This document shows, piece after piece, positions 1 through 38,880 of a stretch of DNA of 64,000 nucleotides. Made by a program: the position numbers and the translations under genes. The DNA is from Pegoplata infirma (Eukaryota; Arthropoda; Insecta; Diptera; Anthomyiidae). The stretch's first letter is position 1, and each line of letters opens with the position of its first letter. Location: assembly GCA_963921195.1 (NCBI GenBank), contig OY992539.1:210556035-210620034 (forward strand). The letters run 5' to 3'. The notes beneath the pieces are model-generated. The model did no database searches and was not told where the DNA came from. It worked only from the letters and a program-made list of their open reading frames with translations.

Positions 1-1118
1 CTACAGAAAATTTCACTCCGAAATGTATAAATTTTTGTATAGAAAATTTTACTCTGAATTGTATAGAATTTTCTATAGAAAACTGTACTGTATAAAATTT
101 TCTAAAGACAAATTTGCTCCGACATGTATAAAATTGTCTATAGAAAAATTTACACCGAAATGTTTAAAATTTTTTAATGCTATATTTTCTTTAGAACATT
201 TTACTCCGAAATGTATAAAATTTTTTATAGTAAATTTTACTCCGAAAAGTATACAATTTTCTATAGAAAATTTTACTCCGAAATGTATAAAATTTTCTAT
301 AGAAAATTTTACTCTTAAATGTATAAAATTGTCTCTAGAAACTTTTACTCCGAAATGTATAAAATTTTCTATAGAAAATTTTACTCCGAAAATTTTTATT
401 TTACTCCGAAATGTATAAACTTTTTCTATAGAAAACTTCACTCCGAAATGTATAAAATTGTCTCTAGAATTTTTTCTCCGAAATGTATAAAATTTTCTAA
501 GATAAATTTTACTCCGAAATGTATAACATTTTCTTTAGAAAATTTTACTTCGAAATGTATAAAATTGTCTATAAAAAATTTTACTCCGAATGTATTAAAT
601 TTTCTGTAAAAAATTTTACTCCGAAATGTATAAAATTTTCTATAAAAAATTTTTGTCCGAAATGTATAAAATTTTCTATAGAAAATTTTACTTCTCAATT
701 TATATAATTTTCTATAAAAAATGTTACTCCGAAAATTTTTATTTTACTCCGAAATGTATAAAATTGTCTTAAGAAAATTTTACTCCGAAATGTATAAAAC
801 TTTCTATTGAAAACTTACCTCAGAAAAGTATAAAATTTTCAGTAGAAAATTTTACTCCGAAATGTATAAAATTTTCTGTAAAAAATTTTACTCCGAAATG
901 TATAAAATTTCCTATAGAAAATTTTTGTCCGAAGAAAATTTTACTCCAAAATTTATAAAATTTTATATAGAAAATTTTACTTCGAAATGTATGAAAGTTT
1001 CTATAGAAAATGTATAATATTTTGCTCGGAAATGTATAAAATTTTCTATAGAAAATTTCGCTCCGAAATGTATAAAATTTTCTATAAGAAATTTTACTCC
1101 GAAATGTATAAAAATTAA
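1..1118. repeat. Degenerate 36-bp minisatellite, 'ACTCCGAAATGTAT' spacer family
   Basis: About 30 diverged units. Each has the palindromic core A4T4-CTATAG-A4T4 (22 bp) followed by a 14-bp spacer close to ACTCCGAAATGTAT. Many units have substitutions or small indels, and two carry an extra 'tttttattttactccgaa' piece. The array runs off the left edge. Open frames across it arise because 36 is a multiple of 3 and the unit has few stops; they are not genes. Confidence 0.93.
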
Positions 1119-2004
1119 CCATTCTGTGCTCTTGGGACTAAAATTATAAAACTGTTAAAATATTTCAAAGAATGCTGCCACCCTAACTTAAATATTTTGC
1201 CCTTATCCAACCATATAGATAATTTGTGTATTGAAGGCAGCAGTATATTCATAAAACTTTATGGCAATTTTGTAAATGGGAAAACTTTTTTTTTTTAAGC
1301 AGCTTCCAAAAATTTTGTAAGCCACATTGTTAACAATGAATGCTGCATTAACTAAAAGCAGCAATATTACTTATTTCTATTTTTTGTTCCAAAACCTAAG
1401 AAATTCATATTCCCCCAGCCTCGCCCTTATCCACACACCTGTAATCTCTTAAAATGCATTCACTTGTAAGTTAAGTTGAAAACAGTGAACACAATACTCT
1501 AAGATTTGACTTTATATAATACAAAAAACGTTAAAAGTTTTTAATTTTGTATATTGTTTTCTCCGTTGCAATGAAAAATTCCTCGAAAACTATTTTACAC
1601 CCAAGACAATGCTGGAAATAATGGTTTTATGCGAAACGAAACGACGACAGATGTATATGCTACAGGGAAAAAACACAAAGATGGTTAAAAGGAATTTTTA
1701 TTATTTTTTTCTTCTTTTTTTTTAATTTCTATATTGTTGAAAAAGAATTTATGATGGTTTATACAATGAAAAGTTCGTTAGACTGAAATGTAAAGAAAAG
1801 TTTTATAGTCATATAACGCACACATACACACATAGTTTTATGGTAAAACTTTTAAAGTTTATTTGAATAACAAGTTGAGGGAAATGGGTTAAGTAACGGT
1901 TGAGTTTTTGGTGAACAATATGGCAACATTGTGCACAGCGTAAAAGTAACAACCTGTTGTTAATGGTAACCAGAACTTAATTTTAACCCAAACAATGTCT
2001 ATGC
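1119..2004. other. Gene-free AT-rich spacer
   Basis: No coding region, splice-supported exon or transposon end was recognised. It separates two 36-bp arrays. Its last 85 bases (1921-1965) carry two motifs, TGGCAACATTGT and TAACAACCTGTTGTTAATG, that recur exactly at 6974-7028 upstream of the CFAP157-like gene. Confidence 0.6.
1921..1965 (+). repeat. Left copy of a direct repeat flanking the 36-bp array
   Basis: TGGCAACATTGT (1921-1932) and TAACAACCTGTTGTTAATG (1947-1965) are separated by 14 bases. Both recur identically, in the same order and strand, at 6974-6985 and 7010-7028 on the other side of the array, with a 24-base separation there. Confidence 0.75.
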
Positions 2005-5000
2005 CTTTTTTTCTATTGAAAATTTTATATAAATCGCAATAAAATTTTCTATAGAAAATTTTATATAAATCGCAATAAAATTTTCTATAGAAAATTTTAT
2101 ATAAATCGCAATAAAATTTTCTATAGAAAATTTTATATAAATCGCAATAAAATTTTCTATAGAAAATTTTATATAAATCGCAATAAAATTTTCTATAGAA
2201 AATTTTATATAAATCGCAATAAAATTTTCTATAGAAAATTTTATATAAATCGCAATAAAATTTTCTATAGAAAATTTTATATAAATCGCAATAAAATTTT
2301 CTATAGAAAATTTTATATAAATCGCAATAAAATTTTCTATAGAAAATTTTATATAAATCGCAATAAAATTTTCTATAGAAAATTTTATATAAATCGCAAT
2401 AAAATTTTCTATAGAAAATTTTATATAAATCGCAATAAAATTTTCTATAGAAAATTTTATATAAATCGCAATAAAATTTTCTATAGAAAATTTTATATAA
2501 ATCGCAATAAAATTTTCTATAGAAAATTTTATATAAATCGCAATAAAATTTTCTATAGAAAATTTTATATAAATCGCAATAAAATTTTCTATAGAAAATT
2601 TTATATAAATCGCAATAAAATTTTCTATAGAAAATTTTATATAAATCGCAATAAAATTTTCTATAGAAAATTTTATATAAATCGCAATAAAATTTTCTAT
2701 AGAAAATTTTATATAAATCGCAAAAAAATTTTCTATAGAAAATTTTATATAAATCGCAATAAAATTTTCTATAGAAAATTTTATATAAATCGCAATAAAA
2801 TTTTCTATAGAAAATTTTATATAAATCGCAATAAAATTTTCTATAGAAAATTTTATATAAATCGCAATAAAATTTTCTATAGAAAATTTTATATAAATCG
2901 CAATAAAATTTTCTATAGAAAATTTTATATAAATCGCAATAAAATTTTCTATAGAAAATTTTATATAAATCGCAATAAAATTTTCTATAGAAAATTTTAT
3001 ATAAATCGCAATAAAATTTTCTATAGAAAATTTTATATAAATCGCAATAAAATTTTCTATAGAAAATTTTATATAAATCGCAATAAAATTTTCTATAGAA
3101 AATTTTATATAAATCGCAATAAAATTTTCTATAGAAAATTTTATATAAATCGCAATAAAATTTTCTATAGAAAATTTTATATAAATCGCAATAAAATTTT
3201 CTATAGAAAATTTTATATAAATCGCAATAAAATTTTCTATAGAAAATTTTATATAAATCGCAATAAAATTTTCTATAGAAAATTTTATATAAATCGCAAT
3301 AAAATTTTCTATAGAAAATTTTATATAAATCGCAATAAAATTTTCTATAGAAAATTTTATATAAATCGCAATAAAATTTTCTATAGAAAATTTTATATAA
3401 ATCGCAATAAAATTTTCTATAGAAAATTTTATATAAATCGCAAAAAAATTTTCTATAGAAAATTTTATATAAATCGCAATAAAATTTTCTATAGAAAATT
3501 TTATATAAATCGCAATAAAATTTTCTATAGAAAATTTTATATAAATCGCAATAAAATTTTCTATAGAAAATTTTATATAAATCGCAATAAAATTTTCTAT
3601 AGAAAATTTTATATAAATCGCAATAAAATTTTCTATAGAAAATTTTATATAAATCGCAATAAAATTTTCTATAGAAAATTTTATATAAATCGCAATAAAA
3701 TTTTCTATAGAAAATTTTATATAAATCGCAATAAAATTTTCTATAGAAAATTTTATATAAATCGCAATAAAATTTTCTATAGAAAATTTTATATAAATCG
3801 CAATAAAATTTTCTATAGAAAATTTTATATAAATCGCAATAAAATTTTCTATAGAAAATTTTATATAAATCGCAATAAAATTTTCTATAGAAAATTTTAT
3901 ATAAATCGCAATAAAATTTTCTATAGAAAATTTTATATAAATCGCAATAAAATTTTCTATAGAAAATTTTATATAAATCGCAATAAAATTTTCTATAGAA
4001 AATTTTATATAAATCGCAATAAAATTTTCTATAGAAAATTTTATATAAATCGCAATAAAATTTTCTATAGAAAATTTTATATAAATCGCAATAAAATTTT
4101 CTATAGAAAATTTTATATAAATCGCAATAAAATTTTCTATAGAAAATTTTATATAAATCGCAATAAAATTTTCTATAGAAAATTTTATATAAATCGCAAT
4201 AAAATTTTCTATAGAAAATTTTATATAAATCGCAATAAAATTTTCTATAGAAAATTTTATATAAATCGCAATAAAATTTTCTATAGAAAATTTTATATAA
4301 ATCGCAATAAAATTTTCTATAGAAAATTTTATATAAATCGCAATAAAATTTTCTATAGAAAATTTTCTATAAATCGCAATAAAATTTTCTATAGAAAATT
4401 TTATATAAATCGCAATAAAATTTTCTATAGAAAATTGTATATAAATCGCAATAAAATTTTCTATAGAAAATTTTATATAAATCGCAATAAAATTTTCTAT
4501 AGAAAATTTTATATAAATCACAATAAAATTTTCTATAGAAAATTTTATATAAATCGCAATAAAATTTTCTATAGAAAATTGTATATAAATCGCAATAAAA
4601 TTTTCTATAGAAAATTTTATATAAATCGCAATAAAATTTTCTATAGAAAATTTTATATAAATCGCAATATAATTTTCTATAGAAAATTTTATATAAATCG
4701 CAATAAAATTTTCTATAGAAAATTTTATATAAATCGCAATAAAATTTTCTATAGAAAATTTTATATAAATCGCAATAAAATTTTCTATAGAAAATTTTAT
4801 ATAAATCGCAATAAAATTTTCTATAGAAAATTTTATATAAATCGCAATAAAATTTTCTATAGAAAATTTTCTATAAATCGCAATAAAATTTTCTATAGAA
4901 AATTTTATATAAATCGCAATAAAATTTTCTATAGAAAATTTTCTATAAATCGCAATAAAATTTTCTATAGAAAATTTTATATAAATCGCAATAAAATTTT

Positions 5001-6922
5001 CTATAGAAAATTTTATATAAATCGCAATAAAATTTTCTATAGAAAATTTTATATAAATCGCAATAAAATTTTCTATAGAAAATTTTATATAAATCGCAAT
5101 AAAATTTTCTATAGAAAATTTTATATAAATCGCAATAAAATTTTCTATAGAAAATTTTATATAAATCGCAATAAAATTTTCTATAGAAAATTTTATATAA
5201 ATCGCAATAAAATTTTCTATAGAAAATTTTATATAAATCGCAATAAAATTTTCTATAGAAAATTTTATATAAATCGCAATAAAATTTTCTATAGAAAATT
5301 TTATATAAATCGCAATAAAATTTTCTATAGAAAATTTTATATAAATCGCAATAAAATTTTCTATAGAAAATTTTATATAAATCGCAATAAAATTTTCTAT
5401 AGAAAATTTTATATAAATCGCAATAAAATTTTCTATAGAAAATTTTATATAAATCACAATAAAATTTTCTATAGAAAATTTTATATAAATCGCAATAAAA
5501 TTTTCTATAGAAAATTTTATATAAATCGCAATAAAATTTTCTATAGAAAATTTTATATAAATCGCAATAAAATTTTCTATAGAAAATTTTATATAAATCG
5601 CAATAAAATTTTCTATAGAAAATTTTATATAAATCGCAATAAAATTTTCTATAGAAAATTTTATATAAATCGCAATAAAATTTTCTATAGAAAATTTTAT
5701 ATAAATCGCAATAAAATTTTCTATAGAAAATTTTATATAAATCGCAATAAAATTTTCTATAGAAAATTTTATATAAATCGCAATAAAATTTTCTATAGAA
5801 AATTTTATATAAATCGCAATAAAATTTTCTATAGAAAATTTTATATAAATCGCAATAAAATTTTCTATAGAAAATTTTATATAAATCGCAATAAAATTTT
5901 CTATAGAAAGTTTTATATAAATCGCAATAAAATTTTCTATAGAAAATTTTATATAAATCGCAATAAAATTTTCTATAGAAAATTTTATATAAATCGCAAT
6001 AAAATTTTCTATAGAAAATTTTATATAAATCGCAATAAAATTTTCTATAGAAAATTTTATATAAATCGCAATAAAATTTTCTATAGAAAATTTTATATAA
6101 ATCGCAATAAAATTTTCTATAGAAAATTTTATATAAATCGCAATAAAATTTTCTATAGAAAATTTTATATAAATCGCAATAAAATTTTCTATAGAAAATT
6201 TTATATAAATCGCAATAAAATTTTCTATAGAAAATTTTATATAAATCGCAATAAAATTTTCTATAGAAAATTTTATATAAATCGCAATAAAATTTTCTAT
6301 AGAAAATTTTATATAAATCGCAATAAAATTTTCTATAGAAAATTTTATATAAATCGCAATAAAATTTTCTATAGAAAATTTTATATAAATCGCAATAAAA
6401 TTTTCTATAGAAAATTTTATATAAATCGCTATAAAATTTTCTATAGAAAATTTTATATAAATCGCAATAAAATTTTCTATAGAAAATTTTATATAAATCG
6501 CAATAAAATTTTCTATAGAAAATTTTATATAAATCGCAATAAAATTTTCTATAGAAAATTTTATATAAATCGCAATAAAATTTTCTATAGAAAATTTTAT
6601 ATAAATCGCAATAAAATTTTCTATAGAAAATTTTATATAAATCGCAATAAAATTTTCTATAGAAAATTTTATATAAATCGCAATAAAATTTTCTATAGAA
6701 AATTTTATATAAATCGCAATAAAATTTTCTATAGAAAATTTTATATAAATCGCAATAAAATTTTCTTAAGAAAATTTTCTATAAATCGCAATAAAATTTT
6801 CTTAAGAAAATTTTCTATAAATCGCAATAAAATTTTCTATAGAAAATTTTCTATAAATCGCAATAAAATTTTCTATAGAAAATTTTCTATAAATCGCAAT
6901 AAAATTTTCTATAGAAAATTTT
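2005..6922. repeat. 4.9-kb homogeneous 36-bp minisatellite, about 136 copies
   Basis: The unit is 36 bp: a perfect 22-bp palindrome A4T4-CTATAG-A4T4 plus the 14-bp spacer ATATAAATCGCAAT. Most copies are identical over kilobases. Variants include CAAAAAAATT at about 2721 and 3441 (720 bp, 20 units apart), a C-TATAAATCG spacer start near 4368, 4869 and 4941, and GTATATAAAT near 4437 and 4578. The right edge (6765-6922) collects divergent units, including two with CTTAAG in the core. Homogeneous centre and decayed edges fit unequal exchange. The unit is 12 codons and stop-free in some frames, which gives very long open frames on both strands that are not genes. Confidence 0.98.
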
Positions 6923-6973
6923 ACTACGAAATTTGTCTAAAAACTACTTTCATGGGTTAATTTGTTTTCTTAT

Positions 6974-7028
6974 TGGCAACATTGTTTAGATTTTCTAACT
7001 TAGTGAAAATAACAACCTGTTGTTAATG
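6974..7028 (+). promoter_or_regulatory. Candidate promoter-proximal element of the CFAP157-like gene
   Basis: Right-hand copy of the paired motifs TGGCAACATTGT (6974-6985) and TAACAACCTGTTGTTAATG (7010-7028), ending 110 bases before the ATG at 7139. The second motif contains a near-palindrome, AACAACCTGTTGTT. Exact retention in two otherwise diverged copies 5 kb apart, next to a gene start, suggests function. That role is inferred, and no TATA box or initiator was identified with confidence. Confidence 0.35.
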
Positions 7029-7138
7029 ACAACTAAAAAATTTTTAATAAACAAAAGTTTAATCAATAAATATAAATAACAAAAATTTTGTTAAAAATTA
7101 CCAGAAGTCTTTTGTAACTTTATAATTAAATATTAAAA

Positions 7139-8989
7139 ATGAGTGCTAAAGAGGGTAAAGGCAAAAAAGGTGGCAAAGGCAAGTCAAAAAAGAGTAAAAA
7201 AGTTGATCCCAATAAATTAAATGCAGTAGATAAAACTTTTTATGAATTAACCATAACGGATCTAAATCAAAAATTGGCACGCCTGAGAACCCATTTGGCA
7301 GCACTAGATGAAACAAATCATAATTTGACAGAGAAACTTAAAATTGTTGAAGAGGATCGTACTGATGTGGCGGCTCATTTAGAGAAAACTTTAGCCGAGA
7401 GAACTGATACCATAAATGAGTTAGAAGAGCGGCTGGTAGAGATAACAAAGGTACGTAATAAAGAGAAATTACAAGCTGAAGAGCATATTAAAGATTTGGA
7501 GAACAAATATAAATCTATGCATGATCAATTGACTTCAGAGATAAAGCTTTTAAATGGTAAATTAAATTCTCTTGATGAATTTCGTATACAACGTGATGTA
7601 TTGTTGGCAAAATTTGATGATCAAGAAACTCAATTGAAAGAAAAAGATCGTTCTCATAAGGAAGCTTTATATGATCTAGAACAAAGAGCAGTGGTAGAAA
7701 AAGATGCTCTAAAAAAAGAAGTCGAAGCTAAACTATTACAAGTATCCGAGGATTTTACCAGATCTAGTGAGATACGTAATGCTGGCTATACCAGACGTTT
7801 AATAAGAGAAAATATAGCTTTACAAAAAGAAATCGATATGTTGGTACTTTCACAGATAAAAATGCAACAAGATTTTAATGAACATGTTACGAAAAATAAA
7901 GAAATGTCTGAACAATATACAGCCCTGGATCAATTAAAAAATCAATTAATTAGATCAGCTCAAAATAAGATCAGAATAATTGAGAAACTTACTGAGAACT
8001 ATGAACATTTGAAAGCTAAGTACACAGAAGTTATAAAATATCGTAATCTCTATGAGAATATAACAAAAAGAGATGTATGTGATAAATTCACCTTCAATGA
8101 AATGTCTAAGAAATTACGTGTTTTAGGACAAAAAATTGAGAGTTTAAAATTGGAAAAAAATCGTTTGATCTCCATGCATGAACAACATGAAAAAGAAATT
8201 TTAAAATTAAGAGAGGTAATACAACAAATTAAATTTACTGTGCAAGTAGCCATTAATGCTATACAAGATGAGAAATTATTTAAAAACCCACCCTCTCATT
8301 TACCATCAGCAAGTGAGAGAGAAGAAAATGCTTTAGATGATACAGCTATGAGAAAATTAAAAAGACATGATTTACTTACCGAACTTATGGATATAGTAAG
8401 CAGTCATTCAGATCGTTTACCGGATACACCCTCTTTACAAACAATATCACATTCTCAGTCTTCGGTATATCGCCGTGGTAAAATGGGTTTCTTGCCTCGT
8501 ACCGGCTCTTCGTTAATGGAAATTTTTAAACGTGAGGCACAAAGACTTTCTACCACAGAAATAACAGCTCCCCCGGTTGTGCTTCAATCACAAGATAGTA
8601 AAATAATACCCAAAAATCGTGCCAAAGAGGCTGGATCTATAATCGATGTAGAATTAGGATCCACACTTATAGTATCATCTTCCCAAGAAGAAGAGGTAGT
8701 ACAAATGGATGAAGAACCTGACGATATGGGTGAAGAAGGTTCAAGTAGTGATGTACCAACGGCTTCGGAACAAAAGATTGAGGATCAAGGTGCCACTGCT
8801 TCAACTTCAAAACGTAGTATGGTTGAAGAAGGTGATGAACAATCATCTATTCAATCTCTTGATATCTCTAAAAGAACACAGGATTCAACGGAAACTCAAT
8901 CTCGGGGTTCTCGTGTTTCGCGTATGTCAAGACAGCAGAGTTTACCACAAATTGATACGGAGGAGTTTTCAATTAATATGTTTTATTAA
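7139..8989 (+). CDS. CFAP157-like axonemal coiled-coil protein
   Basis: Single uninterrupted 616-residue frame. The ATG is in a favourable insect context (TTAAAA before it) and follows an in-frame stop-rich leader. Residues 1-22 are almost all K, G and S. Residues 35-380 are predicted coiled coil, heptad-rich in E, K, L and Q. The C-terminal 230 residues are low-complexity, rich in S, T and E. The order of a Lys/Gly-rich start, a helix beginning 'Dxx-FYELTITDLNQKLARL', a 'LNGKLNSLDEFRIQRD' stretch and a later 'YTRRLIRENIALQKEI' stretch matches my recollection of CFAP157, a ciliary/sperm flagellar protein; known vertebrate members are around 500 residues. Such proteins act at the basal body and axoneme, and a testis role in a fly is expected but not shown here. 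It may be nested in an intron of the CUB gene on the same strand. Another axonemal coiled-coil family remains possible. Confidence 0.7.
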   Translation: MSAKEGKGKKGGKGKSKKSKKVDPNKLNAVDKTFYELTITDLNQKLARLRTHLAALDETNHNLTEKLKIVEEDRTDVAAHLEKTLAERTDTINELEERLVEITKVRNKEKLQAEEHIKDLENKYKSMHDQLTSEIKLLNGKLNSLDEFRIQRDVLLAKFDDQETQLKEKDRSHKEALYDLEQRAVVEKDALKKEVEAKLLQVSEDFTRSSEIRNAGYTRRLIRENIALQKEIDMLVLSQIKMQQDFNEHVTKNKEMSEQYTALDQLKNQLIRSAQNKIRIIEKLTENYEHLKAKYTEVIKYRNLYENITKRDVCDKFTFNEMSKKLRVLGQKIESLKLEKNRLISMHEQHEKEILKLREVIQQIKFTVQVAINAIQDEKLFKNPPSHLPSASEREENALDDTAMRKLKRHDLLTELMDIVSSHSDRLPDTPSLQTISHSQSSVYRRGKMGFLPRTGSSLMEIFKREAQRLSTTEITAPPVVLQSQDSKIIPKNRAKEAGSIIDVELGSTLIVSSSQEEEVVQMDEEPDDMGEEGSSSDVPTASEQKIEDQGATASTSKRSMVEEGDEQSSIQSLDISKRTQDSTETQSRGSRVSRMSRQQSLPQIDTEEFSINMFY

Positions 8990-9026
8990 ATATTTATAAA
9001 ATTTTTAATTAAATGTATTTTTTTGT

Positions 9027-9032
9027 AATAAA
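9027..9032 (+). terminator. Poly(A) signal AATAAA of the CFAP157-like gene
   Basis: AATAAA lies 38 bases after the stop codon, followed by a T-rich stretch; a second AATAAA is at 9051-9056. This implies a very short 3' UTR and a transcript that ends before the CUB exon at 9604. Confidence 0.6.
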
Positions 9033-9603
9033 GCTTTTGGAAAATTTTTTAATAAAACGTATTTGCATTTTAGTAAAGATTAGAACTATAAATATATAAA
9101 GCTCGGCCAAATATATAGTACTCGATCTAAACCGAAAAAATTTAGCAGATGACAGAAACTTTTAAGGGACATTTTTTGAATGTTAAATTTGAAGCCAAAA
9201 TACTTTCGAATGATTCTGAATATCGAATTGAAGATCGAGGTGGAAATTAAGATACAATTTTACAATTTTTACAGTAAAGTTAAAAAAAGTTTGACATCTG
9301 AACCGTAAAATTGTGGCTTTACTTCATTTTTGGTCTGAAATTTAACTTCAGAGTCGTTTTCTGTCGACCTTTCAAAGCTAAATTTTGTTAGAACTTCGAT
9401 TTTGCACAAATTCCTATGATTGCCCCTACAATTTTTTTTTAGAGTGTAGTCAAACTAAAAAAATATGTATTAAAGACTACAAAAAGACTTTTGTAGCTAC
9501 AAAGCTACAAATGAAAAGCTTTTTTTATACTAAAAATAGTTGCAGCCGTTTAATTTAAAAACTTTGATAAACTATTATTTCTCTCTCTCCCGATTTATTT
9601 CAG
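9033..9603. other. Intergenic/intronic sequence before the first visible CUB exon
   Basis: No gene seen. A fragment near 9096-9120 (GCTCGGCCAAATATATAG) resembles the 3' tail of the DINE-1-like element at 61.8-62.6 kb. The last 25 bases form a pyrimidine-rich tract ending in TTTCAG, the acceptor of the next exon. Confidence 0.5.
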
Positions 9604-9834
9604 GGTCACTCAGTACAAACTGAAAAATGTGGCAAAACTATTTCTGACACTTGGGATTGTATCTATGAGACCAGTGGTTCTGTATTTAGTAAACTAAATC
9701 GTACCGATGTTAGTCAAGAAATTGGACCAGGTTGCCGTTGTGGCTGTATTGTACATTTGGGAATGTCTAAACCAAAACGTATTATAGCTGGAGCTACACA
9801 AAGTTGTCCGGGTAGATCATTTTGGTTGATACAG
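9604..9834 (+). CDS. CUB-domain transmembrane protein, exon (first visible)
   Basis: Exon of 231 bases between a TTTCAG acceptor and a GTAAGT donor, reading without stops in phase 0 for 77 residues. It is rich in cysteines (EKCGK, WDC, a GCRCGC cluster, QSCPG), has one N-glycosylation site (NRT), and ends in FWLIQ, the start of the central beta-strands of a CUB domain. CUB domains are extracellular protein-binding modules. Together with the next five exons it gives an 805-residue C-terminal portion. The signal peptide and any earlier domains must lie in upstream exons that were not found here. I do not recognise the specific family member, so no symbol is given. Confidence 0.8.
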
Positions 9835-10030
9835 GTAAGTGATAAAAAAATATATTTTTTTAAATAAAACTAAGACAACAATGAATTCTAATTTCCATAA
9901 AAAATTATTTCTACACTCAAAATAAATTCTCTGTCCAATCAGCAGAAAAATCTGCTGAAAATACACCCATTTTGAGCCATATGAGAAATCTGCTGATTTT
10001 AGCAGACACGGTTTGCTAAATATCTGTCAT

Positions 10031-10105: not shown

Positions 10106-10139
10106 ATACTTTTATCTGGTGTTTTAGTTATTAACACAC

Positions 10140-10516: not shown

Positions 10517-13118
10517 TAAATAATTACGTATGCTCAATTTCGGAGTATATTTTTATAGAATTTTTTCCCGAAATCCCTCTTATTTAAATAGAAAACTTAA
10601 TTTTAAAATAAATATTTACTTCATTTTGCTTTAAAGTAATAAAATATTCTACAGAAAATTTACTCAATCTCTAAGTAAAATTTTCAAACAGATTTTTTTA
10701 ACAATTCGGAATAAAAATTTCTATAGAAAATTTTATACATTTTGCAGTAAAATTTTCACATTTATTGCGTTATTTCGGAATAAAATAAAAACAAATTATT
10801 TTCTATAGAAAATTTTATACATTTTGAGTAAACATTTTCATATAAAAGTTATTTATTCCGAAATTATTTTACTCCGAAATAATGTTAATTTTGTATTTTA
10901 CTCCGAAAAATGTTCTGTCAAAAAATTGTTAACTCCGAATGGTATTAAATTTTCTATAAAAAATTTCCTCCAAAATAATAAAATTTTTTACAAAAAATTT
11001 TACTCCGAAATAATAGAATTTTTTTACAAAAATTTTACTTCGAAATAGATAGAATTTTCTACAAAAACGTACTCCGAAATGAACACAATTATCAATATAA
11101 AATTTTACTCCGAAAATGTATAAAATTTTCTGCTATTTTTTTTTTATACTCCGAAATTGATAGAATTTTCTTACAGAAATTTTACTTTGAAATAGATAGA
11201 ATTTTCTACTCCGAAATGAACACAATTATCAATATAAAATTTTACTCCGAAAATGTATAAAATTTTCTACTATTTTTTTTATAGGGATATTTTTTTTATA
11301 TGGATATAAAATTTTACTCCGAAATTAATAGAATATTGTTACAAAAATTTTACTTCGAAATGTATAGAATTTTCTACAAACGTACTCCGGAATAAACAGA
11401 ATTATCCATATAAAAATTTACTCCGAAAATGGATAAAATTTTCTAAATTTTTTTTTATTCCGAAAGTGGATAAACATTTTTTATTAAAAAATTTTACTCC
11501 GAAATATATAAATATATAAAATTTTCTAATAAAAAAATTTTACTCCGACATTAATAAGATTTTCTATTAAAAACTTTTACTCTTTAATGGATAAAATTTT
11601 GTGTTGAAAAATGTTATACCAAATTGAATAAAATATTCCATAGAAATTTTTTTGTAAATTTTACTCCGAATTCTGTAGACAATTTTACACCAAATGAAGT
11701 GAATTTTCATTGAAAATCTTCTTTTTTACTTCTAAATAAAGTAAATTTATCTATTTTTCTCCGAAACTGGTAACAATTTGTATAGAATTTTAAATAGAAA
11801 ATTGAATACATTTTGTAGTAAAATTTTACGAAATGGATAAAATTGTTCATAGAAAATTTTACTCTGAATTTTCCATAGAAAATTTTACTCAGAAAATAGA
11901 TAAACCTTTCTATGAAATTTTTACTCCGAAATTGGATTAAAGTTTGTATGAAGTTTTCAGTCCGACAATGTATAAAATTTTTTATGAAATTTTTACTCCG
12001 AAAATGGATAAAATTTTGTTTGAAGTTTTTACTCCGAAACTGGATAAAAATTTATATTAAAAAATGTTACTCCGAAATGGATAAAATATTCTATTTTAAA
12101 ATTTTACTACGAAATGGATAAAATTTTCTATTGAAAAATTTTTTACTGAATTGAAAAAAAATTTCTATAGAAAATTTCTTTGTTAATTTTATCCATTTCG
12201 GAGTAAATTTTTTTAATAGAAAATTTTATCCATTTTCGAAGTAAAAACTTTAACTTCATCCAATTTCGGAGTAAGAATTTCATAGAAAGGTTTATCCAAT
12301 TTCAGAGTAAAATTTTGTACGGAAAACTTTATCCATTTTGGAAAATTTTACTAAGAAATGTAAGTATAAAATTTTCTATATCAAATTCTATAAAAAATGT
12401 TATCAGTTTCGGACAAAAATAGACAATTTACTTCATAAAGGAGCAAAATAAAATTTTTTTACTTCATTTGGTGTAAAATTGTCTACAGAAATTTAAATAG
12501 AATTTCGAGTAAAATATACAAAGAAAATTTCTATAGAATATTTTATTCCATTAAGGAACAAAAGTTTTCTATAGAATATTTTATTCAATTAAGGAGCAAA
12601 AGTTTTCAAAAGAAAAATTTATCCATTTTCGGAGTAAAATTTTTTAATAGAAAATTTTATTCATTTTCGAAGTAAAATTTTTTAATAGAAAATTTTATTA
12701 ATTTTCGAAGTAAAAACTTCATAGAAAATTTTATTTATTTTCGAAGTTTATTTTTTTATGGAAAATTTTTTTTCATTTCGGAGTAAAATTTTTTTTGTAG
12801 AAAATTCTATCCATTTCGGAGTTAAATTTTCTTTAGAAAACTCTATCCATTTCGGAATAAAATTTTCCCTTGAAAATTCTATCCATTTCGGAGTAAAATT
12901 TTTTGTAGAAAATTTTATTAATTTAGGAGTAAAATTTGTTATAGAAAATTTTATACAATTCGGAGTTATAAAATTTTAGACTGAAAATTTTTTCTCGGAA
13001 AGGTTTTAGGAGTTATACAATTCTCGATAAAAAATTTTTTCTCCGAAAGGCTTTATTTACATATTTTAAAGAACATTTTACTATAAATATATTTTCATAG
13101 AAAATTTTACTCTGAATT
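10517..13118. repeat. Diverged 36-bp minisatellite with an orientation switch near 12.18 kb
   Basis: From about 10.86 to 12.12 kb, decayed cores (TTTTCTATAGAAAA and variants) carry spacers reading ACTCCGAAATGGAT. From about 12.18 to 12.97 kb the spacers read as the inverse (ATCCATTTCGGAGT). The palindromic core cannot show orientation, so only the spacer reveals the flip. No gene is present. The last unit (to about 13118) abuts the LINE. Confidence 0.85.
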
Positions 13119-13132
13119 GTACAAATACAAGT

Positions 13133-13999
13133 TTGCACAGTTTGACAACTGATCTGGAGAAACAATTTGAGGAACATAGTCGTACCTTTGAGCGGCAGGT
13201 TTATGCAAGTATTGCAGCACTTGATGCGAAAATGGTTGAACTATTTGATAAGTTCCGTACAGAACAAATTAAAGTTGTGGAAAATATAAAAAATGATGTG
13301 GCTCATAACTATAATATGTTGAAGCAGGTTGATACTGAGGCTTGTAGGCGGGTGTTGAATTTGGAAAGTCAGAACAACATCCTACAGAGACGTTTAAATA
13401 GATCCAATATAGTAATTAAGGGTCTGTCCAAAAACATAAAGGACCTTAGGAAACTGTTTCTTAAAATTTCTTCATTGTGTAATATACCTTTATCGAATTC
13501 TGATATACAGCACATCACGTACTTTAGTAGCGGTAACGCAGTATTAGTTAAACTAAATTCTGTACAAACCCGAGATGAAATTATGAGTAGTTTTTCCCAG
13601 CTTAAATTTCTGAAAAAGAAGGATATTGAGGGTGGTAATTCGGAAGCAAAAATACTTCTTCATGACCATTTTACACGCGCCGCAGGATATCTTGTTGGCA
13701 TATGTATGAAATTACGAGAAAATAAACAAATTTTAAGGTACAAATTTATAAATACCGACGTTCCTAAAGTAATGATATCGTTTCCAAATAATGTTCAAAA
13801 AGTTCTAAATACTGAACAATGTTTGGATATGTTGGATAACTTTGTTTTTGATGATAACGTTAATGATACCCCTCTTGATGGGTCGGCATGTCGAGTCAAT
13901 CGAAGTCCTGAAAACTTGAGTGTGGGTGTGTCTAATGGTGGTTATAATTATCCCCCCTGTAGACGGTCGTTGGATGAAGCGGAATTAGATCATATTTAA
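13133..13999 (+). CDS. LINE ORF1 protein (5' incomplete)
   Basis: Open frame of 288 residues with no ATG at its left end (it enters from the truncation point); stop TAA at 13997. Residues 1-90 are helical and charged (probable coiled coil for trimerisation). A stretch at about 91-170 beginning SNIVIKGLSK has the pattern of an RRM-like RNA-binding domain, and about 175-250 fits a C-terminal domain of L1/CR1-type ORF1 proteins (KILLHDHFTRAA, then LRENKQILRYKF). No CCHC zinc knuckle is visible, which differs from classical Jockey gag proteins. ORF1 proteins bind element RNA. Assignment rests on position before ORF2 and on general pattern. Confidence 0.75.
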   Translation: MHSLTTDLEKQFEEHSRTFERQVYASIAALDAKMVELFDKFRTEQIKVVENIKNDVAHNYNMLKQVDTEACRRVLNLESQNNILQRRLNRSNIVIKGLSKNIKDLRKLFLKISSLCNIPLSNSDIQHITYFSSGNAVLVKLNSVQTRDEIMSSFSQLKFLKKKDIEGGNSEAKILLHDHFTRAAGYLVGICMKLRENKQILRYKFINTDVPKVMISFPNNVQKVLNTEQCLDMLDNFVFDDNVNDTPLDGSACRVNRSPENLSVGVSNGGYNYPPCRRSLDEAELDHI

Positions 14000-14188
14000 G
14001 TATTTATGTGTCTTAAATTATTATTCTTTTTTATATAAATCAATATTTTGCTTAGCAAATATGCTTTAATGATTATTGTCAGATTATAATTATTGTCTTT
14101 TTGAAAACTGTGATTTTAGTCAACTTTTTTTTGCAATTTTAATTGCTATTACATATTAATTTAAACTTTTTTTTTTATATTATTTTAA

Positions 14189-14357
14189 ATGATTTTAAAT
14201 TCCAATTTGGGTACCGTGGTTAGCGATAGTTCATATTTGGAATCTCAATTGCGTCTTTATGCCAATAATTTAAATGTTGGACATATTAATATTCAAAGTT
14301 TTAAACTTGGCAGTTCATCAAGTAAATTGGATGAGTTAATTAATGCTCTTGGTAATG
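14189..14357 (+). pseudogene. LINE ORF2, N-terminal fragment (start of endonuclease)
   Basis: An ATG at 14189 opens a frame whose residues 31-37 read GHINIQS, the first conserved strand of APE-type LINE endonucleases, followed by KLDEL. It is interrupted at 14358 by a TIR element. Dropping 14358-15013 (656 bases: the element plus one TG) brings the two parts of ORF2 into the same frame, which supports a precise insertion. Confidence 0.8.
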
Positions 14358-15011
14358 CACAGAAAGAAATAAAAAAAAAATTTGAGTAAATTTTTAATAC
14401 TATTGAGTAAAAAATTACTCAATTTTCCACCAGTAAACGATTTAATAGTATTGAGTAAATTTTTAATAAAAATTTATTAAATGTTTGCCAAAAAAATTTG
14501 AGTAAATTTTTAATTGACACTATTAAGTGCAGGAACAGAACAAGAAGCACCACCTTTTAAAAACAGAACAAGTTTTATTTCACATCGGCGCCGGCCACCG
14601 GTTTAATCTGCCAAACCGTATGGAAAAAGTCGTGCCGGGCTTATTCTGTTTCTACTCAAAAAAAACAAAGTTTAAAAAAATTTCATATTTTTTTACAAAG
14701 AAAAAAAACATGTTTTTTCAAACTTTACCAAATATATTTTTGTCTTAAAGACATAAAAAAATTTTATAAATATGATTACAAACTTTCATGTATATATACA
14801 AAAAACTATAAACTAAACGAGAATTAAAAAAACTAAGAAAATTCCAAAAAAAATTAAAAAAGCTATTAAATTCTTATTAAATTATTTACTCAATTTGTTT
14901 TTAAATTTTTGAGTAAATTTTTAATTGCGTCAATTAAAAAATTACTCAAAACTTTTTTTAAATTTAAACAAGTGATTACTCAAATTATTTTTCCCCATAT
15001 TTTTTTCTGTG
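14358..15011. mobile_element. Small TIR element (CACAGAAA ends) inserted in LINE ORF2
   Basis: Left end CACAGAAAGAAAT and right end TTTTTTCTGTG are inverse, with TG on both outer sides (14356-14357 and 15012-15013). Subterminal TTTGAGTAA appears inverted near both ends (about 14381 on the left, TTACTCAAA near 14975). The interior is AT-rich with repeated TTGAGTAAATTTTTAAT in both orientations. A short open frame at 14527-14748 has no recognised homology. Similar ends and TG flanks occur at 21474-21721. Confidence 0.72.
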
Positions 15012-15015
15012 TGGG

Positions 15016-17670
15016 TTGTTTGACGTAGTGGGAATAACGGAAACCTGGTTAAAGGGAGATCTTTCTTCAAATATTGTTAATTATCCCGGGTATGTTTTAT
15101 GTCGTAATGACCGGCCTAATCGTAGAGGGGGCGGTGTTGCCTTCTATGTATCAAGTAAAATAAAGTTTAAAATTGTTTACATTGGTAATGATTATGGATT
15201 AGTTGAATCTCTTTTTATTGAGATTAATAATTTTGGTCGTAAAATTTTAATTGGTGTGGTATACTTTCCTCGTGGGGCTAAGAAACATTTAAAAAAGTTT
15301 GAAACGAAAGTTTCTGATATTTTAGTGAAATATAATAATGTAGTTATTGTTGGAGATTTCAACAATAATATGTTTAACATTTTCTGCGCCCATCGTATGA
15401 GGGTAATGTGCAACAGATTGAATTTAACTTGTCATCATAATTCCTTACCCACGCATCTTTTTGTGAAATCTGGCAGAACCTCATTAATTGATTTTTTTTT
15501 AGTATCTCCGTCCATGTCTGTCCGTCAGTCTGGGCAAATGCAATTTCCTGGAATTTCGCGACATTCTTTTATTTATGCATCTTTTGATGTACAAATAAAT
15601 AATGTTAATGAAGTTGTTGAATATTATGACTATAATAATGTTGATATGATTTGTTTGGAGAGAATTGCGGCATCTTGCAGCTTTGAAAGCGTTCTTAATT
15701 CTGCTAGCGTTGATGAACAAGCAGAAATTTTATTTACCTTTTTATGTAACATGCATAATGCTGTTCCTTTGAGGAAAAAAAAAGTAAATAAAGTTGATGA
15801 TAATTCTTGGATTAATTCTAATGAGGTTAGGAGTGCTTTGGCACTTCGTGATGCTGCGTATCAACTTTACCTTACTGAAATGACTCGTCCTAATTGGAGA
15901 AAGTTTTGTCGTTTCAGAAATCATGCCAAAACGGTGATGCGTAATGCAAAACGCAGGGCGCATGCAAAAATTTTTGAAGGTAAAACTTCCAAGCAGATCT
16001 GGAATACATTACGTTCAAATGGGTTTGGAGATGACATGTCTTTGGTGGATGAAATCGATGTTGAAGCTTTAAATCAGTATTTTGTATCTAATCAAGAAGA
16101 TGATTTAACAGATGATATTAACCTCAATGGGGTAGAAGGGTTTTCATTTCGATCGGTTGACATCAATGAATTAATTATTGCTGTGGAATCTGTTAAGACA
16201 AATGCTATTGGATGTGATGGTATTCCGATAAAATTTCTAAAATTGGTTTTTCCTTATGTTGGATATTTTTTTTTACATTTTGTCAACACGATTATTACTA
16301 CTTCTACCTTCCCGTCTGGTTGGAAAATTGGTAGAATAGTTCCTATTAAAAAGACGGGTGAGTCTGTTGATATGGAAAACTTGCGTCCTATATCTATACT
16401 GCCAGCTCTCTCGAAGGTTGTTGAAATTCTGCTAAAGAATCAGCTTCTTGCGCACATAAGTGGTAATTCATTATTAAGTAATTGTCAATATGGATTTAGA
16501 TGTGGTAGAAATACAACATCACTTCTCTTGGGAGTAACTGATACTATTCGTCAGTCTCTTAGTAGAAAACGTCTTAACGTACTTTTATCTATTGATCTTA
16601 CAAAAGCCTTTGACAAGGTAAATCATACAATTTTATTAACCAAGCTTATTCGCAATTTTGGACTCTCGTCTACGGCATGCAAACTTATTTCATCTTATCT
16701 CAGTGATAGACGTCAGTACGTTTCTATTGGTAGTAGGGTTTCGGGTGTTTTACCGGTTAAAAGTGGGGTGCCTCAAGGATCAGTCCTTGGGCCTTTACTT
16801 TTTAATATGTATATCAACGATATTTTCATGGATTTCAATATGACGTCATGTTTACCATTTGCTTACGCAGATGATTTAATGTTTTTATTTAGTGGTGAGA
16901 GACAGTTTGAGGATGTTTTGCAACAAATGATAAATTTTTGCATTTCCAATTTATCAAACTGGATGGTGCGTAATCGACTTTGTATTAATGCTCTTAAAAC
17001 AAAGGCTATGTTTTTTGGTTCTTCTGTTCCAAACTTAGATATTATTATTCATGGTACGAGAGTTGAATTTGTGGACCAAATGTACTGTCTGGGCTTATGG
17101 TTAGATAATAAATTAAAATTTGAAAGACATATTAATTTCGTTACTTCTAGAGTTAATTGTTCATTACGTAGACTTTATAACGTCAACTTATGCTTACCAA
17201 TGCATATCAAAGTTATGATTATTCATTCATTGGTTATGCCTATATTTTTATATGGTATTGAAGTATATACTGGCACACTTGGGTGTCATATGAAGAAACT
17301 TTTAGTACTGTTCAATAGAGTTATGCGATATCTATACTGCTTAAGATTTCGAAATCATGTATCAACGTATGTTGCGAAGTTTTTGGGCTGTTCATTTGAT
17401 AACTATGTGAAAATAAGGCTTTTACTCTGCTTTTACAATATGTTTAAAAGGGGAACTATTGAATATTTGCTTTCATTTTTTTCATTTAGTCGATCTACAC
17501 GTAATTGTCAAATTTTGATTCCTAAGCTAACTTCCCTAGTGGAAAGATCTTTTCATGTAAGAGTTGCACGAATTTTCAATAAATTACCAGAAAATTTAAA
17601 ATCTTTTGAGTTTTCTAATTCTACTTACAAACGTAAATTGTTGAAGCACATTCAGAGGAATGAGATGTAA
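15016..17670 (+). pseudogene. LINE ORF2: endonuclease and reverse transcriptase (N-terminus separated by insertion)
   Basis: 884 residues without a stop. The endonuclease part shows ITETWL (7-12), GDFNNN (113-118), SLIDF (156-160) and SRHSF (181-185; SDH-like position). The reverse transcriptase shows LRPISILPALSKVVE, QYGFR, LTKAFDKVNH (about 530), GVPQGSVLGPLLFN (about 584-597) and catalytic YADD (617-620). All key reverse transcriptase residues are present. The enzyme would nick target DNA and prime cDNA synthesis. The separation from its N-terminal 56 residues by the 656-base insertion makes this copy non-functional as it stands. Confidence 0.93.
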
Positions 17671-17999
17671 GTTTATTTTTTGGACTATTTTATTATGGCT
17701 TAGACCACAAATGTTATTGAGATTGTTTATATTGTTGTTAATATTTCTACCCGGTACCCTTTAGCTTTTTTTACATTTAAATTATTTCAATTGCCATTTT
17801 ATTTTTGATTTAAAATTATTTTTTTTATATTAAAAAAAAAAAATGTACTTAATTATTTTTAGATATTTATTATATATGCATATTCTTTTATTTGTTTGTT
17901 AAGTAGTATGTTTTGAGTTGTATTTTTAAACCATATATGGCCCTCTGGGCTCGGTTTTTGTGTAACATTGATTAAATAAATAAAATAAATAAATAAATA

Positions 18000-18174
18000 T
18001 CACAGCCCTACAAAAAAAAACAAAGGTTCTGACCCAGAAACTAGATCCCATAATTTCTATTTACTGTGATCTCCTGAATTCCATTTCGCCATTAGTATTG
18101 TAATCAATTCTTACTCTGAAATAAAAATATATATATATTTTTTTTAAATTATTTTCTAATAATTTAATTCTATT
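18000..18174. other. Spacer after the LINE
   Basis: No gene or transposon end seen between the LINE tail and the next 36-bp units. Confidence 0.5.
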
Positions 18175-18290
18175 TTTCTATAGAAAATTTTATTACGATT
18201 TTGTATAAAATTTTCTATAGAAAATTTTATTCCGATTTTGTATAAAATTTTCTATAGAAAGTTTTATTCCGATTTTGTATAAAATTTTTT
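18175..18290. repeat. Short 36-bp-family array, 'ATTCCGATTTTGTAT' spacer
   Basis: Three units with the CTATAG palindromic core and a spacer that is one base longer than usual (15 bp), so the period here is about 37. Confidence 0.85.
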
Positions 18291-18599
18291 CCAAGTTTTT
18301 TTTTTTTTTTAAAAAAAGTTGTGAAAAATAAAAAAAAACGAAAATTTATTTTTATTTTTTGGAAAAAAAAACTTTGAAAATTTTTGAGAGATAAAAAAAA
18401 TAAAATTTACTACTTTAAATAACTGTTACTACATTACAGCACTTTTTTGTTAGTTATTCAAAAAAACGACTTGAAATAACTAACAAAAATAGTTGTTTGA
18501 TATTTTTCATACAAAAGCAACTGACTTTGTAGTTGAAAACAACTAACTACTGTAAAATATACAAACAACTTACATGTAGTAACTTACATAATTTTCTGA
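18291..18599. other. AT-rich gap between 36-bp arrays
   Basis: Homopolymeric T and A runs, then 18440-18590 with repeated AGTTGTTTG / CAACTGACTT / AACAACTAAC words in both orientations, possibly a decayed inverted-repeat element. No coding potential. Confidence 0.45.
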
Positions 18600-18960
18600 G
18601 TGTATAGAAAATTTTATTCCAATTTGTATAAAATTTTCTATAGAACATTTTATTCCGAATTGTATAAAATTTTCTATAGAAACTTTTATTCCGATTTGTA
18701 TAAAATTTTCTATAGAAAATTTTATTCCGATTTGTATAAAATTTTTTATAGAAAATTTTATTCCGATTTGTATAAAATTTTCTATAGAAAATTTCATTTC
18801 GTTTTGTATAAATTTTTCTTTAGAAAATTTTCTTCTGATTTTGTATAAAATTTTTCTATAGTAAATTTTATTCCGTTTTGTATAAAATTTTCTATAAACA
18901 ATTTTATCTCGATTGTATAAAATTTGTATAAAAATTTTTTTATTAACTTTTGTTAAGATA
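18600..18960. repeat. 36-bp-family array, 'ATTCCGATTTGTAT' spacer
   Basis: About ten units of palindromic core plus a 14-bp spacer ATTCCGATTTGTAT, with later units diverging (for example TTCGTTTTGTAT). Open frames on both strands follow from the 12-codon period. Confidence 0.9.
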
Positions 18961-19439
18961 TTTTTTTGCATTAATTTTTTTTCTATTCGAATTAAAATAT
19001 CCTACACCTTTTGGCTTCCTAAAGAAAAATTGGTCGATTTATTAAAGGTCACAAAATCCAATAAAAATAAATTGGGAGTAAAATGTTTGCAATCCAATAC
19101 GTGTCACCGAAATTACTATTATAACCACACATTCAAATAGACACTCTAATATTGACAATGGTTCATACACAAACTACCTTAGCAAATTCAAAAATCCTTA
19201 CCTACACATTGACAAGAAAAAAGTTTTAACTACTACAAACAAATAACTATAAAAAAGGACCTCTTTCACATCAATAGATAAGTTAAAGTGAAGTTTGTGT
19301 GTTGGCTTTAAGGGTGCAATGACACTCCAGTATATAAAAAACATACCGAGTAAAAAAAGTTTATATATAATTATAAAAAATAAATAATTTGATAGAATTA
19401 TATTATTATATCCAATTTTAGTAAAATTTGAAATTTTAT

Positions 19440-20360
19440 TCCGATTTTCTATAAATTTTTGTTTAGAAAATTTTGTTCCGTTTTGTATAAAATTTTCTAT
19501 AGAAAATTTTATTCCGTTTTGTATAAAATTTTCTATAGAAAATTTTATTCCGTTTTGTATAAAATTTTCTATAGAAAATTTTATTCCGTTTTGTATAAAA
19601 TTTTCTATAGAAAATTTTATTCCGTTTTGTATAAAATTTTCTATAGAAAATTTTATTCCGTTTTGTATAAAATTTTCTATAGAAAATTTTATTCCATTTT
19701 GTATAAAATTTTCTATAGAAAATTTTATTCCGTTTTGTATAAAATTTTCTATAGAAAATTTTATTCCGTTTTGTATAAATTTTTCTATAGAAAATTTTAT
19801 TCCGTTTTGTATAAATTTTTCTATAGAAAATTTTATTCCGTTTTGTATAAAATTTTCGACAGAAAATTTTATTCCGTTTTGTATAAAATTTTCGACAGAA
19901 AATTTTATTCCGTTTTGTATAAAATTTTCTATCGAAAATTTTAATCCGTTTTGTATAAAATTTTCTATCGAAAATTTTAATCCGTTTTGTATAAAATTTT
20001 CTATAGAAAATTTTATTCCGTTTTGTATAAAATTTTCTATAGAAAATTTTATTCCGTTTTGTATAAAATTTTCTATAGAAAATTTAATTCCGTTTTGTAT
20101 TAAGTTTTCTATAGAAAATTTAATTCCGTTTTGTATTAAGTTTTCTATAGAAAATTTTAATCCGTTTTGTATAAAATTTTCTATAGAAAATTTTATTCCG
20201 TTTTGTATAAAATTTTCTATAGAAAATTTTATTCCGTTTTGTATAAAATTTTCTATAGAAAATTTTTTATTATTTTATATTATTTTAAAATTTTTTGTAT
20301 AAAATATTCTATAGAAAATTTTATTCCGTTTTGTATAAAATTTTCTATAGGAATAAAATT
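19440..20360. repeat. 36-bp-family array, 'ATTCCGTTTTGTAT' spacer, about 25 copies
   Basis: The period is exactly 36. The core is the same 22-bp palindrome as in the 2-7 kb array but the spacer is ATTCCGTTTTGTAT. Local variants come in adjacent pairs (two units with CGACAG, two with CTATCG, two with TTAAGTTTTCTATAG), which is a sign of unit-by-unit duplication. Confidence 0.96.
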
Positions 20361-37512: not shown

Positions 37513-37527
37513 AAAAAGCTTTAAATA

Positions 37528-38878: not shown

Positions 38879-38880
38879 TA

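What the first reader, a model, noticed from the sequence alone, without database searches (positions are those of the whole stretch)
1..20360. Minisatellite super-family with a constant 22-bp palindrome and a swappable 14-bp spacer
At least five arrays in this window (1-1.1, 2.0-6.9, 10.9-13.1, 18.6-18.9 and 19.4-20.4 kb) share the core A4T4-CTATAG-A4T4 and an exact 36-bp period, while the 14-bp spacer is array-specific: ACTCCGAAATGTAT, ATATAAATCGCAAT, ATTCCGATTTGTAT or ATTCCGTTTTGTAT. Core conservation despite spacer turnover suggests that the palindrome itself is selected or drives spread, for example by cruciform extrusion, replication slippage, or binding of a dimeric protein. The repeated structure is seen directly; the mechanism is inferred.
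Basis: partly seen in the sequence, partly recalled or inferred. Interest (0 to 1): 0.8.

Follow-up and report, generated by a model that had tools for sequence, protein, structure and literature searches.

The report
Palindrome-cored minisatellites in fly introns
A short DNA palindrome is repeated in tandem at many places in a fly genome; in this window one local version of the repeat has multiplied, and at places flipped direction, in and around the introns of a single gene, which looks like a self-expanding repeat rather than a selected control element.

Summary
The arrays and the 22-bp palindrome AAAATTTTCTATAGAAAATTTT are real: 148 exact copies in the window, 4930 in the 1.38-Gb assembly, reversed control 0. 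"Array-specific swapped spacers" is wrong inside the window. The 2.0-6.9 kb array is the same 36-bp unit inverted: its spacer read backwards differs from the 18.6-kb array's at 2 of 14 bases. Exact matches to a pattern covering the window's spacers lie only in 24 kb, beside a TSP1 exon and a CFAP157 gene.

The same core sits beside other spacers: a second palindrome GTTATCGATATATCGATAAC (period 47) and shorter forms (periods 39, 33). A relative with spacer GTCTCAGATTCTGAGAC fills 5% of a hand-placed 200-kb sample.

Selection on the core is not supported: within arrays, core and spacer diverge about equally once base composition is allowed for. Best reading: a dispersed two-palindrome minisatellite whose second palindrome shortens or decays, followed by local re-amplification and orientation flips at palindromes. 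No recurrent terminal repeats were found at the few loci examined. The flip mechanism is inferred.

The parts
1..1115 (+). Array A1, 36-bp unit core+ACTCCGAAATGTAT, degenerate; continues left of the window (L034 about 3290-4535)
   Evidence: 27 of 27 units +; 54 of 54 units + including the upstream part
2009..6923 (-). Array A2, about 136 copies, 99% alike, same unit INVERTED (spacer ATTGCGATTTATAT read on the - strand)
   Evidence: 136 units -
6919..6940 (+). Right edge of A2: one unit of the A1-like type in the opposite (+) orientation (ACTACGAAATTTGT); the switch lies at an intact core
10906..12165 (+). Array A3 left arm, degenerate units, mostly + orientation
12185..13140 (-). Array A3 right arm, mostly - orientation; imperfect inverted repeat of the left arm (68% of columns)
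18174..18288 (+). Array A4, period 37 (spacer ATTCCGATTTTGTAT)
18603..18938 (+). Array A5, spacer ATTCCGATTTGTAT (with ATTCCGAATTGTAT and ATTCCGTTTTGTAT copies)
19431..20349 (+). Array A6, spacer ATTCCGTTTTGTAT
20340..20366 (-). Right edge of A6: inverted half unit (CTATAG followed by GAATAAAATTTT), an orientation switch
25700..26720 (-). Degenerate array of the related B family (TTTTTC(C)TATAGAAAAA plus GTCTCAGATTCTGAGAC, period about 37 here)
37571..38846 (+). B-family array, period 35, 94.5% alike
7139..8989 (+). CFAP157 gene (one exon) between arrays A2 and A3; context, not part of the repeat
   Evidence: best named match Cochliomyia hominivorax, 71% over 97%
9604..9834 (+). Probable next exon of the host gene after the upstream TSP1 exon (assignment inferred; no Pfam match)
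   Evidence: no family; TSP1 exon L034:3041-3169

Best explanation
These arrays are the local branch of a dispersed minisatellite family in a large (1.38 Gb) calyptrate-type fly genome. The most complete unit alternates two palindromes, AAAATTTTCTATAGAAAATTTT and GTTATCGATATATCGATAAC (period 47). At single loci the second palindrome has been truncated or has decayed (spacers of 17, 11 and, in this window, 14 bp) while the first stayed readable. The shortened unit was then re-amplified locally, probably by unequal exchange or replication slippage, giving more homogeneous arrays with a local spacer type and older variants at the edges. Orientation switches in the window's arrays lie at or next to a palindromic core. 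They are best explained by hairpin or cruciform-associated strand or template switching, which leaves no scar because the core reads the same both ways. The core is shared because of descent, not because it is kept by purifying selection. In this window the family multiplied through what appear to be the introns of one TSP1-domain gene.

Shown: the arrays, orientations, local spacer, genome-wide core and second palindrome, the similarity of the 47/39 spacers, the shared TTGTTATCGA of the 33 spacer, older units at edges of A0 and of the period-39 arrays, and near-equal divergence. Inferred: the direction of truncation, descent of the 36-bp spacer from the 47-bp unit, the intron assignment, and the exchange and template-switch steps.
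For: Core 4930 exact copies, reversed control 0. Second palindrome 2811, control 0. All 174 exact matches of the 36-bp spacer pattern lie at C4:210552791-210576374: 25 forward upstream, 28 forward and 121 reverse in the window (the reversed control had 1). Period-39 spacers align to the period-47 spacer (shuffle p 0.0005 and 0.001). Period-33 spacer TTGTTATCGAC read in L035. S47-like units at the left edge of the period-39 array L007 and at the two outer edges of the L012/L013 pair. A0 has ACTCCGAAATGTAT at both edges and ATTCCGAATTGTAT in the middle. Near-equal divergence. Duplicated variants not significantly rarer in core than in spacer (34 of 251 against 38 of 211, p 0.20, seven arrays). 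Opposite orientations in A2/A3/A6, L012/L013 and L026. Hairpin energies: core -4.8 kcal/mol, z -3.3; period-47 unit two hairpins, z -5.4.
Against: The window's 36-bp spacer is not significantly alignable to the 39/47 spacers (12 comparisons, shuffle p 0.03-0.70), so its descent from the second palindrome is a guess; it could be an acquired spacer. Some arrays show the core slower: A/T sites in L005 (p 8e-6), B2 (p 4e-4) and A0 (p 0.025), although B2 and A0 mix two spacer variants. Locus L012 carries period-47 and period-39 arrays about 1 kb apart, and the period-39 arrays there mix TTTACGAT and TTTTCGAT spacers, so 'one spacer per locus' is not strict. Among 13 minisatellite families in the 200-kb sample, palindromic units are not over-represented (2 of 13 at p at most 0.05, combined p 0.22), so palindromes are not shown to be a general driver here. 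No general excess of compensatory core changes.
Confidence: 0.6

Rival explanations
1. Foldback-type DNA transposons: the arrays are tandem-repeat-bearing long terminal inverted repeats, moved by a transposase acting in trans, as in Tetris or FB elements. Single arrays are remnants of such elements.
For: Inverted array pairs: A3, L012/L013 arrays of about 4 kb and 2.9 kb in opposite orientation with about 1.8 kb between, L026 B arrays of opposite orientation. The B2 array lies inside a 12-bp inverted end pair TACGAGGGTTGT / ACAACCCTCGTA with TA at both ends (window 37526 and 38880). Some Drosophila foldback-like elements carry tandem repeats in their inverted arms (PMC4079207, abstract and named sections read; PMC4168063, passages read).
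Against: At C1:18.47 Mb the 15 longest inverted matches shown cover only the arrays, not the flanks. The TACGAGGG end is absent at the other B arrays examined; in L001-L033 its only other occurrence is L027:267, outside that array. No target-site duplication was recognised by eye; no systematic search was made. A0, A1, A4 and A5 are all-plus, and A6 has only an inverted half unit at its edge.
Confidence: 0.2
2. The core is a selected protein-binding site (dimeric protein), and spacers are free to change.
For: Exact core shared by loci with unrelated spacers. The second palindrome contains TATCGATA, which resembles the DRE/BEAF CGATA motifs of Drosophila (recalled, not tested).
Against: No core-specific constraint inside the window arrays tested. 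The central CTATAG diverges more than the A4T4 tracts in all six arrays or arms tested. Only 3 of roughly 33 units in the window part of A1 and none in A3 keep an exact core.
Confidence: 0.07
3. Module capture: the core is an active seed that acquires unrelated flanking DNA as a new spacer and amplifies it, so that spacers are truly swapped between loci.
For: 36-bp spacer and the B spacer are not significantly alignable to the 47-bp spacer. L008 shows short CGAAAGT/TGATAGT-like spacers.
Against: Periods 47, 39 and 33 form a shortening series of one spacer. Spacer and core diverge together within arrays. B has a different, only partly matching core, so it need not share descent.
Confidence: 0.13

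Closest known systems
36TR repeats inside pDv elements of Drosophila virilis (and the related pvB370 satellite)
   Same: 36-bp tandem units in a fly genome with array-size variation among copies (PMC6922343, passages read)
   Different: pDv repeats lie inside a described transposable element; no element termini were found here. Sequence identity was not tested (unit sequence not at hand).
Tetris foldback element / TIR-220 repeats of D. virilis
   Same: Tandem repeats in inverted pairs that also exist as long homogeneous arrays (PMC4079207: abstract, section 10 and first part of the discussion read)
   Different: About 220-bp units within terminal repeats with 8-10 bp target duplications; here 33-47 bp palindromic units, no recognised termini or duplications
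Galileo element of D. willistoni, longest copy
   Same: Inverted arms containing direct tandem repeats (PMC4168063, passages read; a single copy there)
   Different: About 140-bp repeats, P-superfamily element, 7-8 bp target duplications
Ordinary dispersed minisatellites evolving by slippage or unequal exchange
   Same: Homogeneous middle, divergent edges, local variants (A0)
   Different: Two-palindrome unit, shortening series and orientation switches at the palindrome

Membership tests
Minisatellite | Tandem head-to-tail units of roughly 10-100 bp | tested here: met
Foldback transposon (FB, Tetris, Galileo-like) | Long inverted repeats containing tandem repeats | tested here: met
   A3 and L012/L013; A0, A1, A4, A5 all in one direction
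Foldback transposon (FB, Tetris, Galileo-like) | Shared terminal sequence at element ends | tested here: not met
   The 15 longest inverted matches limited to arrays at C1:18.47 Mb; TACGAGGG end only at window B2 among L001-L033 arrays. Only a few loci examined.
Foldback transposon (FB, Tetris, Galileo-like) | Target-site duplications | tested here: inconclusive
   TA on both sides at B2 only, by eye; no systematic search
Foldback transposon (FB, Tetris, Galileo-like) | Transposase source in the genome | not tested
   The genome search answered only four times
pDv/36TR | 36-bp period | tested here: met
   (this locus; 33, 39, 47 elsewhere)
pDv/36TR | Unit sequence identity with D. virilis 36TR | not testable with these tools
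   unit sequence not seen in the passages read; Drosophila genomes not held
Protein-binding array under selection | Core columns constrained relative to spacer | tested here: not met
   a small effect at other loci (A/T OR 0.90, p 0.004) and in B2 and A0
   Met for the 36-bp spacer: all 174 exact matches in 24 kb. L012 holds period-47 and period-39 arrays close together. Not tested for the 39 and 33 spacers: searches unanswered

The most novel reading that the evidence does not exclude
Palindromic hairpins act as portable amplification seeds. A two-hairpin unit spreads through the genome; when one hairpin is destroyed at a locus the remaining single-hairpin unit becomes able to run out into long, homogeneous, local arrays, written in either direction by hairpin-primed template switching. 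This would link loss of one palindrome to array expansion. In line with it, the five loci read with intact double palindromes are degenerate (about 72-85% alike, gaps left out: L005, L006, L009, L010 and the L012 left part), while truncated-spacer arrays are 95-99% alike (L007, L012/L013, L035, A2). Against it: A1 and A3, of the truncated 36-bp type, are degenerate too, and the two-hairpin B arrays L016 and L026a are 98% alike.
Probability: 0.12. Interest if true: 0.75.

Novelty: new variant of a known kind. Interest (0 to 1): 0.45.

Why it matters
Here one genome holds what looks like a graded series of one two-palindrome unit, a local branch confined to 24 kb round one gene, and a related family filling about 5% of a small sample. 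That makes the question 'do hairpin-forming units seed, flip and expand tandem arrays?' testable by comparison of loci and of sister species. It also warns that a palindromic core hides array orientation, so that an inverted array can look like a new spacer.

Tried and rejected
Selection on the core: tested, mostly not supported. Compensatory changes keeping the palindrome: doubles 3 in A1 (expected 2.6), 18 in A3 (expected 19.3), 1 in A5+A6 (0.5) and 2 in A2 (0.04; CTTAAG in two nearby units): no general excess. Palindromes as a general driver of minisatellites: not supported. Array translations as bait for relatives in the protein database: 6313 candidates, none at E up to 0.001, and 1628 candidates, none at E up to 10, although a calibration against other window arrays showed that such matches can score. 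Core in viral contigs: 0 (the tool notes that the window's own genome may be left out). Rfam at gathering threshold and tRNA: none. PMC for the sequences: two unrelated papers for TTTTCTATAGAAAA, none for six longer strings. Keyword searches showed no paper on these arrays among the titles and abstracts listed; lists were capped, so that is not proof of absence. B2's mariner-like ends as a common carrier: not found at the other B arrays examined. The 20 sample stretches were at fixed round coordinates on the four largest contigs, chosen by hand, not drawn at random. The flank comparison was cut in display; only the shown part was used. L008 and L011 were left out of the divergence tests (too few or too degenerate units), as was A4.
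Full report
WHAT WAS CHECKED. The window is 64 kb at C4:210556035-210620034 of a 1.384-Gb assembly with 813 contigs. It is AT-rich. The single-exon gene at 7139-8989 encodes CFAP157; its best named relative is Cochliomyia hominivorax at 71% identity, with Stomoxys and Musca species at 61-63%, so the host is a calyptrate-type fly (inference). An upstream exon (L034:3041-3169) is a thrombospondin type 1 domain (Pfam E 3.4e-10), and window 9604-9834 looks like a following exon (inferred; no Pfam match). A reverse-transcriptase element lies at 13.1-18.0 kb.

THE ARRAYS. The 22-bp core is a perfect palindrome. Exact copies: 3 in A1, 130 in A2, 0 in A3, 1 in A4, 1 in A5 and 13 in A6. Spacing of exactly 36 between neighbouring cores with at most 3 mismatches holds for 135 of 135 (A2), 22 of 23 (A6), 6 of 7 (A5), 13 of 18 (A1) and 1 of 8 (A3).

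ONE SPACER, NOT FOUR. Because the core is palindromic, the direction of an array can be read only from the spacer. Reading the A2 spacer backwards gives ATTGCGATTTATAT, two differences from A5's ATTCCGATTTGTAT, three from A6's and five from A1's; the forward comparison with A5 gives 8. A1, A5 and A6 differ by 1, 3 and 4. In the alignment test the pairs among these four score at p up to 0.003, except A1 with A2 (p 0.056). An upstream array A0 supplies an intermediate, ATTCCGAATTGTAT, with the A1 type at both its edges, which is what local amplification from the middle of an array gives. Scanning both orientations yields 293 units in A0-A6: A0 37 plus; A1 54 plus; A2 136 minus and one plus at its right edge; A3 17 plus and 13 minus; A4 3, A5 7 and A6 25 plus. 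Two further weak matches in the scanned range fell outside these groups. In the rest of the window the same scan gave about as many weak matches as Markov sequences do (9 listed beyond 20.4 kb against 4-6, unmerged, several of the 9 being one other satellite).

ORIENTATION SWITCHES. A2 ends, across an intact core, in an A1-like unit of opposite direction. A6 ends with an inverted half unit after a last CTATAG. A3 is an imperfect inverted repeat with its switch next to a core at 12.16-12.19 kb. Outside the window, C1:18.47 Mb has two arrays of about 4 and 2.9 kb in opposite direction with about 1.8 kb between them, and L026 has B-family arrays of opposite direction.

GENOME-WIDE. Exact core: 4930 places, reversed control 0. 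Pattern TTTTAYTSCGWWWTRTATAAAA, which covers the window's spacers: 53 forward and 121 reverse in the whole genome, control 1 and 0. The window has 28 and 121 and the remaining 25 forward are listed just upstream, so all 174 lie within 24 kb. Copies with further differences elsewhere are not excluded. Eight clusters (nine stretches) on C1, from the first 100 listed rows of core places, were fetched. Five (L005, L006, L009, L010, L012 left part) carry period-47 arrays of about 95-115 copies with a palindromic spacer. L007 and L012/L013 carry period-39 arrays of 75, 101 and 74 copies. L011 holds scattered degenerate S47-like units and L008 short other spacers. A further locus, L035, has period 33 with TTGTTATCGAC. 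The second palindrome has 2811 exact places, control 0. Core followed by G plus C, G or T: 317 forward and 327 reverse, the 100 listed running along C1 and into C2.

SAMPLE. Twenty 10-kb stretches at hand-chosen round coordinates on C1-C4 contain no S36 or S47 match, but 10197 bp of B-type repeat in 8 of 20 (nhmmer). Tandem Repeats Finder shows consensus units of this type in 7 of 20, one of them (L031) degraded and not among the 8. TTTTCTATAGAAAA with up to one mismatch occurs 122 times there, in 7 of 20 stretches, against 0-5 for 12 shuffled palindromes (two of them identical).

IS THE CORE SELECTED? Raw mismatch rates in core and spacer do not differ in the six window arrays or arms tested (p 0.11-0.70). 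At the other loci the spacer is faster at p up to 0.05 in six of eight arrays (down to 2e-9), not significantly in L010 (p 0.21), and slower in the L012 left part (p 0.02). G and C columns tend to be faster and spacers hold more of them. Split by base class, the pooled odds ratio (core against spacer) over 14 arrays is 0.93 at A/T (p 0.028) and 1.16 at G/C sites (p 0.028); window alone 1.38 (p 0.026) and 1.74 (p 0.0065); other loci 0.90 (p 0.004) and 1.10 (p 0.17). Single arrays that depart at A/T sites: core slower in L005 (p 8e-6), faster in A3 left arm (p 0.0035) and L012 left part (p 0.016). Six further arrays (A/T sites): core slower in B2 (p 4e-4) and A0 (p 0.025), no significant difference in L035 (p 0.065), L016 (p 0.12) and two in L026. 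Variants that were duplicated into neighbours make up 34 of 251 in the core and 38 of 211 in the spacer (p 0.20, seven arrays). There is at most a small core effect, not the strong constraint that the finding proposed.

HOW IT PROBABLY WORKS. The 47, 39 and 33 spacers share TTGTTATCG/CTGTTATCG and shorten from a palindrome to half of it; the left edge of L007 and the outer edges of the L012/L013 pair still carry 47-like units. I infer truncation of the second palindrome, followed by local re-amplification. The 36-bp spacer of the window fits by size, and A5's shares CGATTT with L007's, but the similarity is not significant (p 0.03-0.70 over 12 comparisons). A single strand of the core folds into a 9-bp stem (-4.8 kcal/mol), the 47-bp unit into two hairpins (-11.2) and the B unit into two (-8.5); hairpins would explain direction switches, but this was not shown.

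AGAINST COMPETING IDEAS. Foldback transposons explain inverted pairs, and B2 in the window does have 12-bp inverted ends with TA on both sides, but such ends do not recur at the other arrays examined; target duplications were looked for by eye only. Palindromicity is not general among the 13 minisatellite families of the sample.

LIMITS. The genome search answered four times only. Whether the 39- and 33-bp spacers are also confined to their loci, genome-wide flanks and sister species could not be tested. Letters from the genome were capped. L012 shows that two spacer lengths can lie about 1 kb apart.

Noticed in passing
window 37526-38880: B-family array lies inside a 12-bp inverted pair TACGAGGGTTGT / ACAACCCTCGTA, TA on both sides, possibly a mariner-like MITE (name recalled).
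   Followed up: partly
L014-L033 (20 sample stretches): B-family repeat (two palindromes, period 35) covers 5.1% of 200 kb; if typical, tens of Mb of the genome.
   Followed up: partly
L017 5408-9159, L025 2844-4139: A 21-bp minisatellite (ATGTATTTTAAAATTGTCCAA) in opposite-direction array pairs at two loci.
   Followed up: no
L015 8347-9282, L024 6681-7621: 162-bp tandem duplications that look like inverted pairs, same family at two loci.
   Followed up: no
window 40901-53866: 330-334-bp tandem repeats at 40.9-41.6, 47.9-48.9, 51.5-52.5 and 52.9-53.9 kb, TTTAAAGCGTTATATCTCAGAAAC type.
   Followed up: no
window 1940-1984 and 7003-7044: Direct repeat (80%) on both sides of array A2 (AACAACCTGTTGTTAATG), next to the CFAP157 start; perhaps a duplicated promoter piece.
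   Followed up: no
window 31735-33450 and 34770-35900: Two large inverted repeats seen by eye.
   Followed up: no
window 14352-15010 and 21476-21725: Two MITE-like inserts with CACAGAAA..TTTCTGTG-type ends seen by eye, the first inside the LINE.
   Followed up: no
G000 C1: In the 100 listed places, core+G places are dense at 14-90 Mb and 179-320 Mb of C1, with one place between 89.5 and 179 Mb.
   Followed up: no
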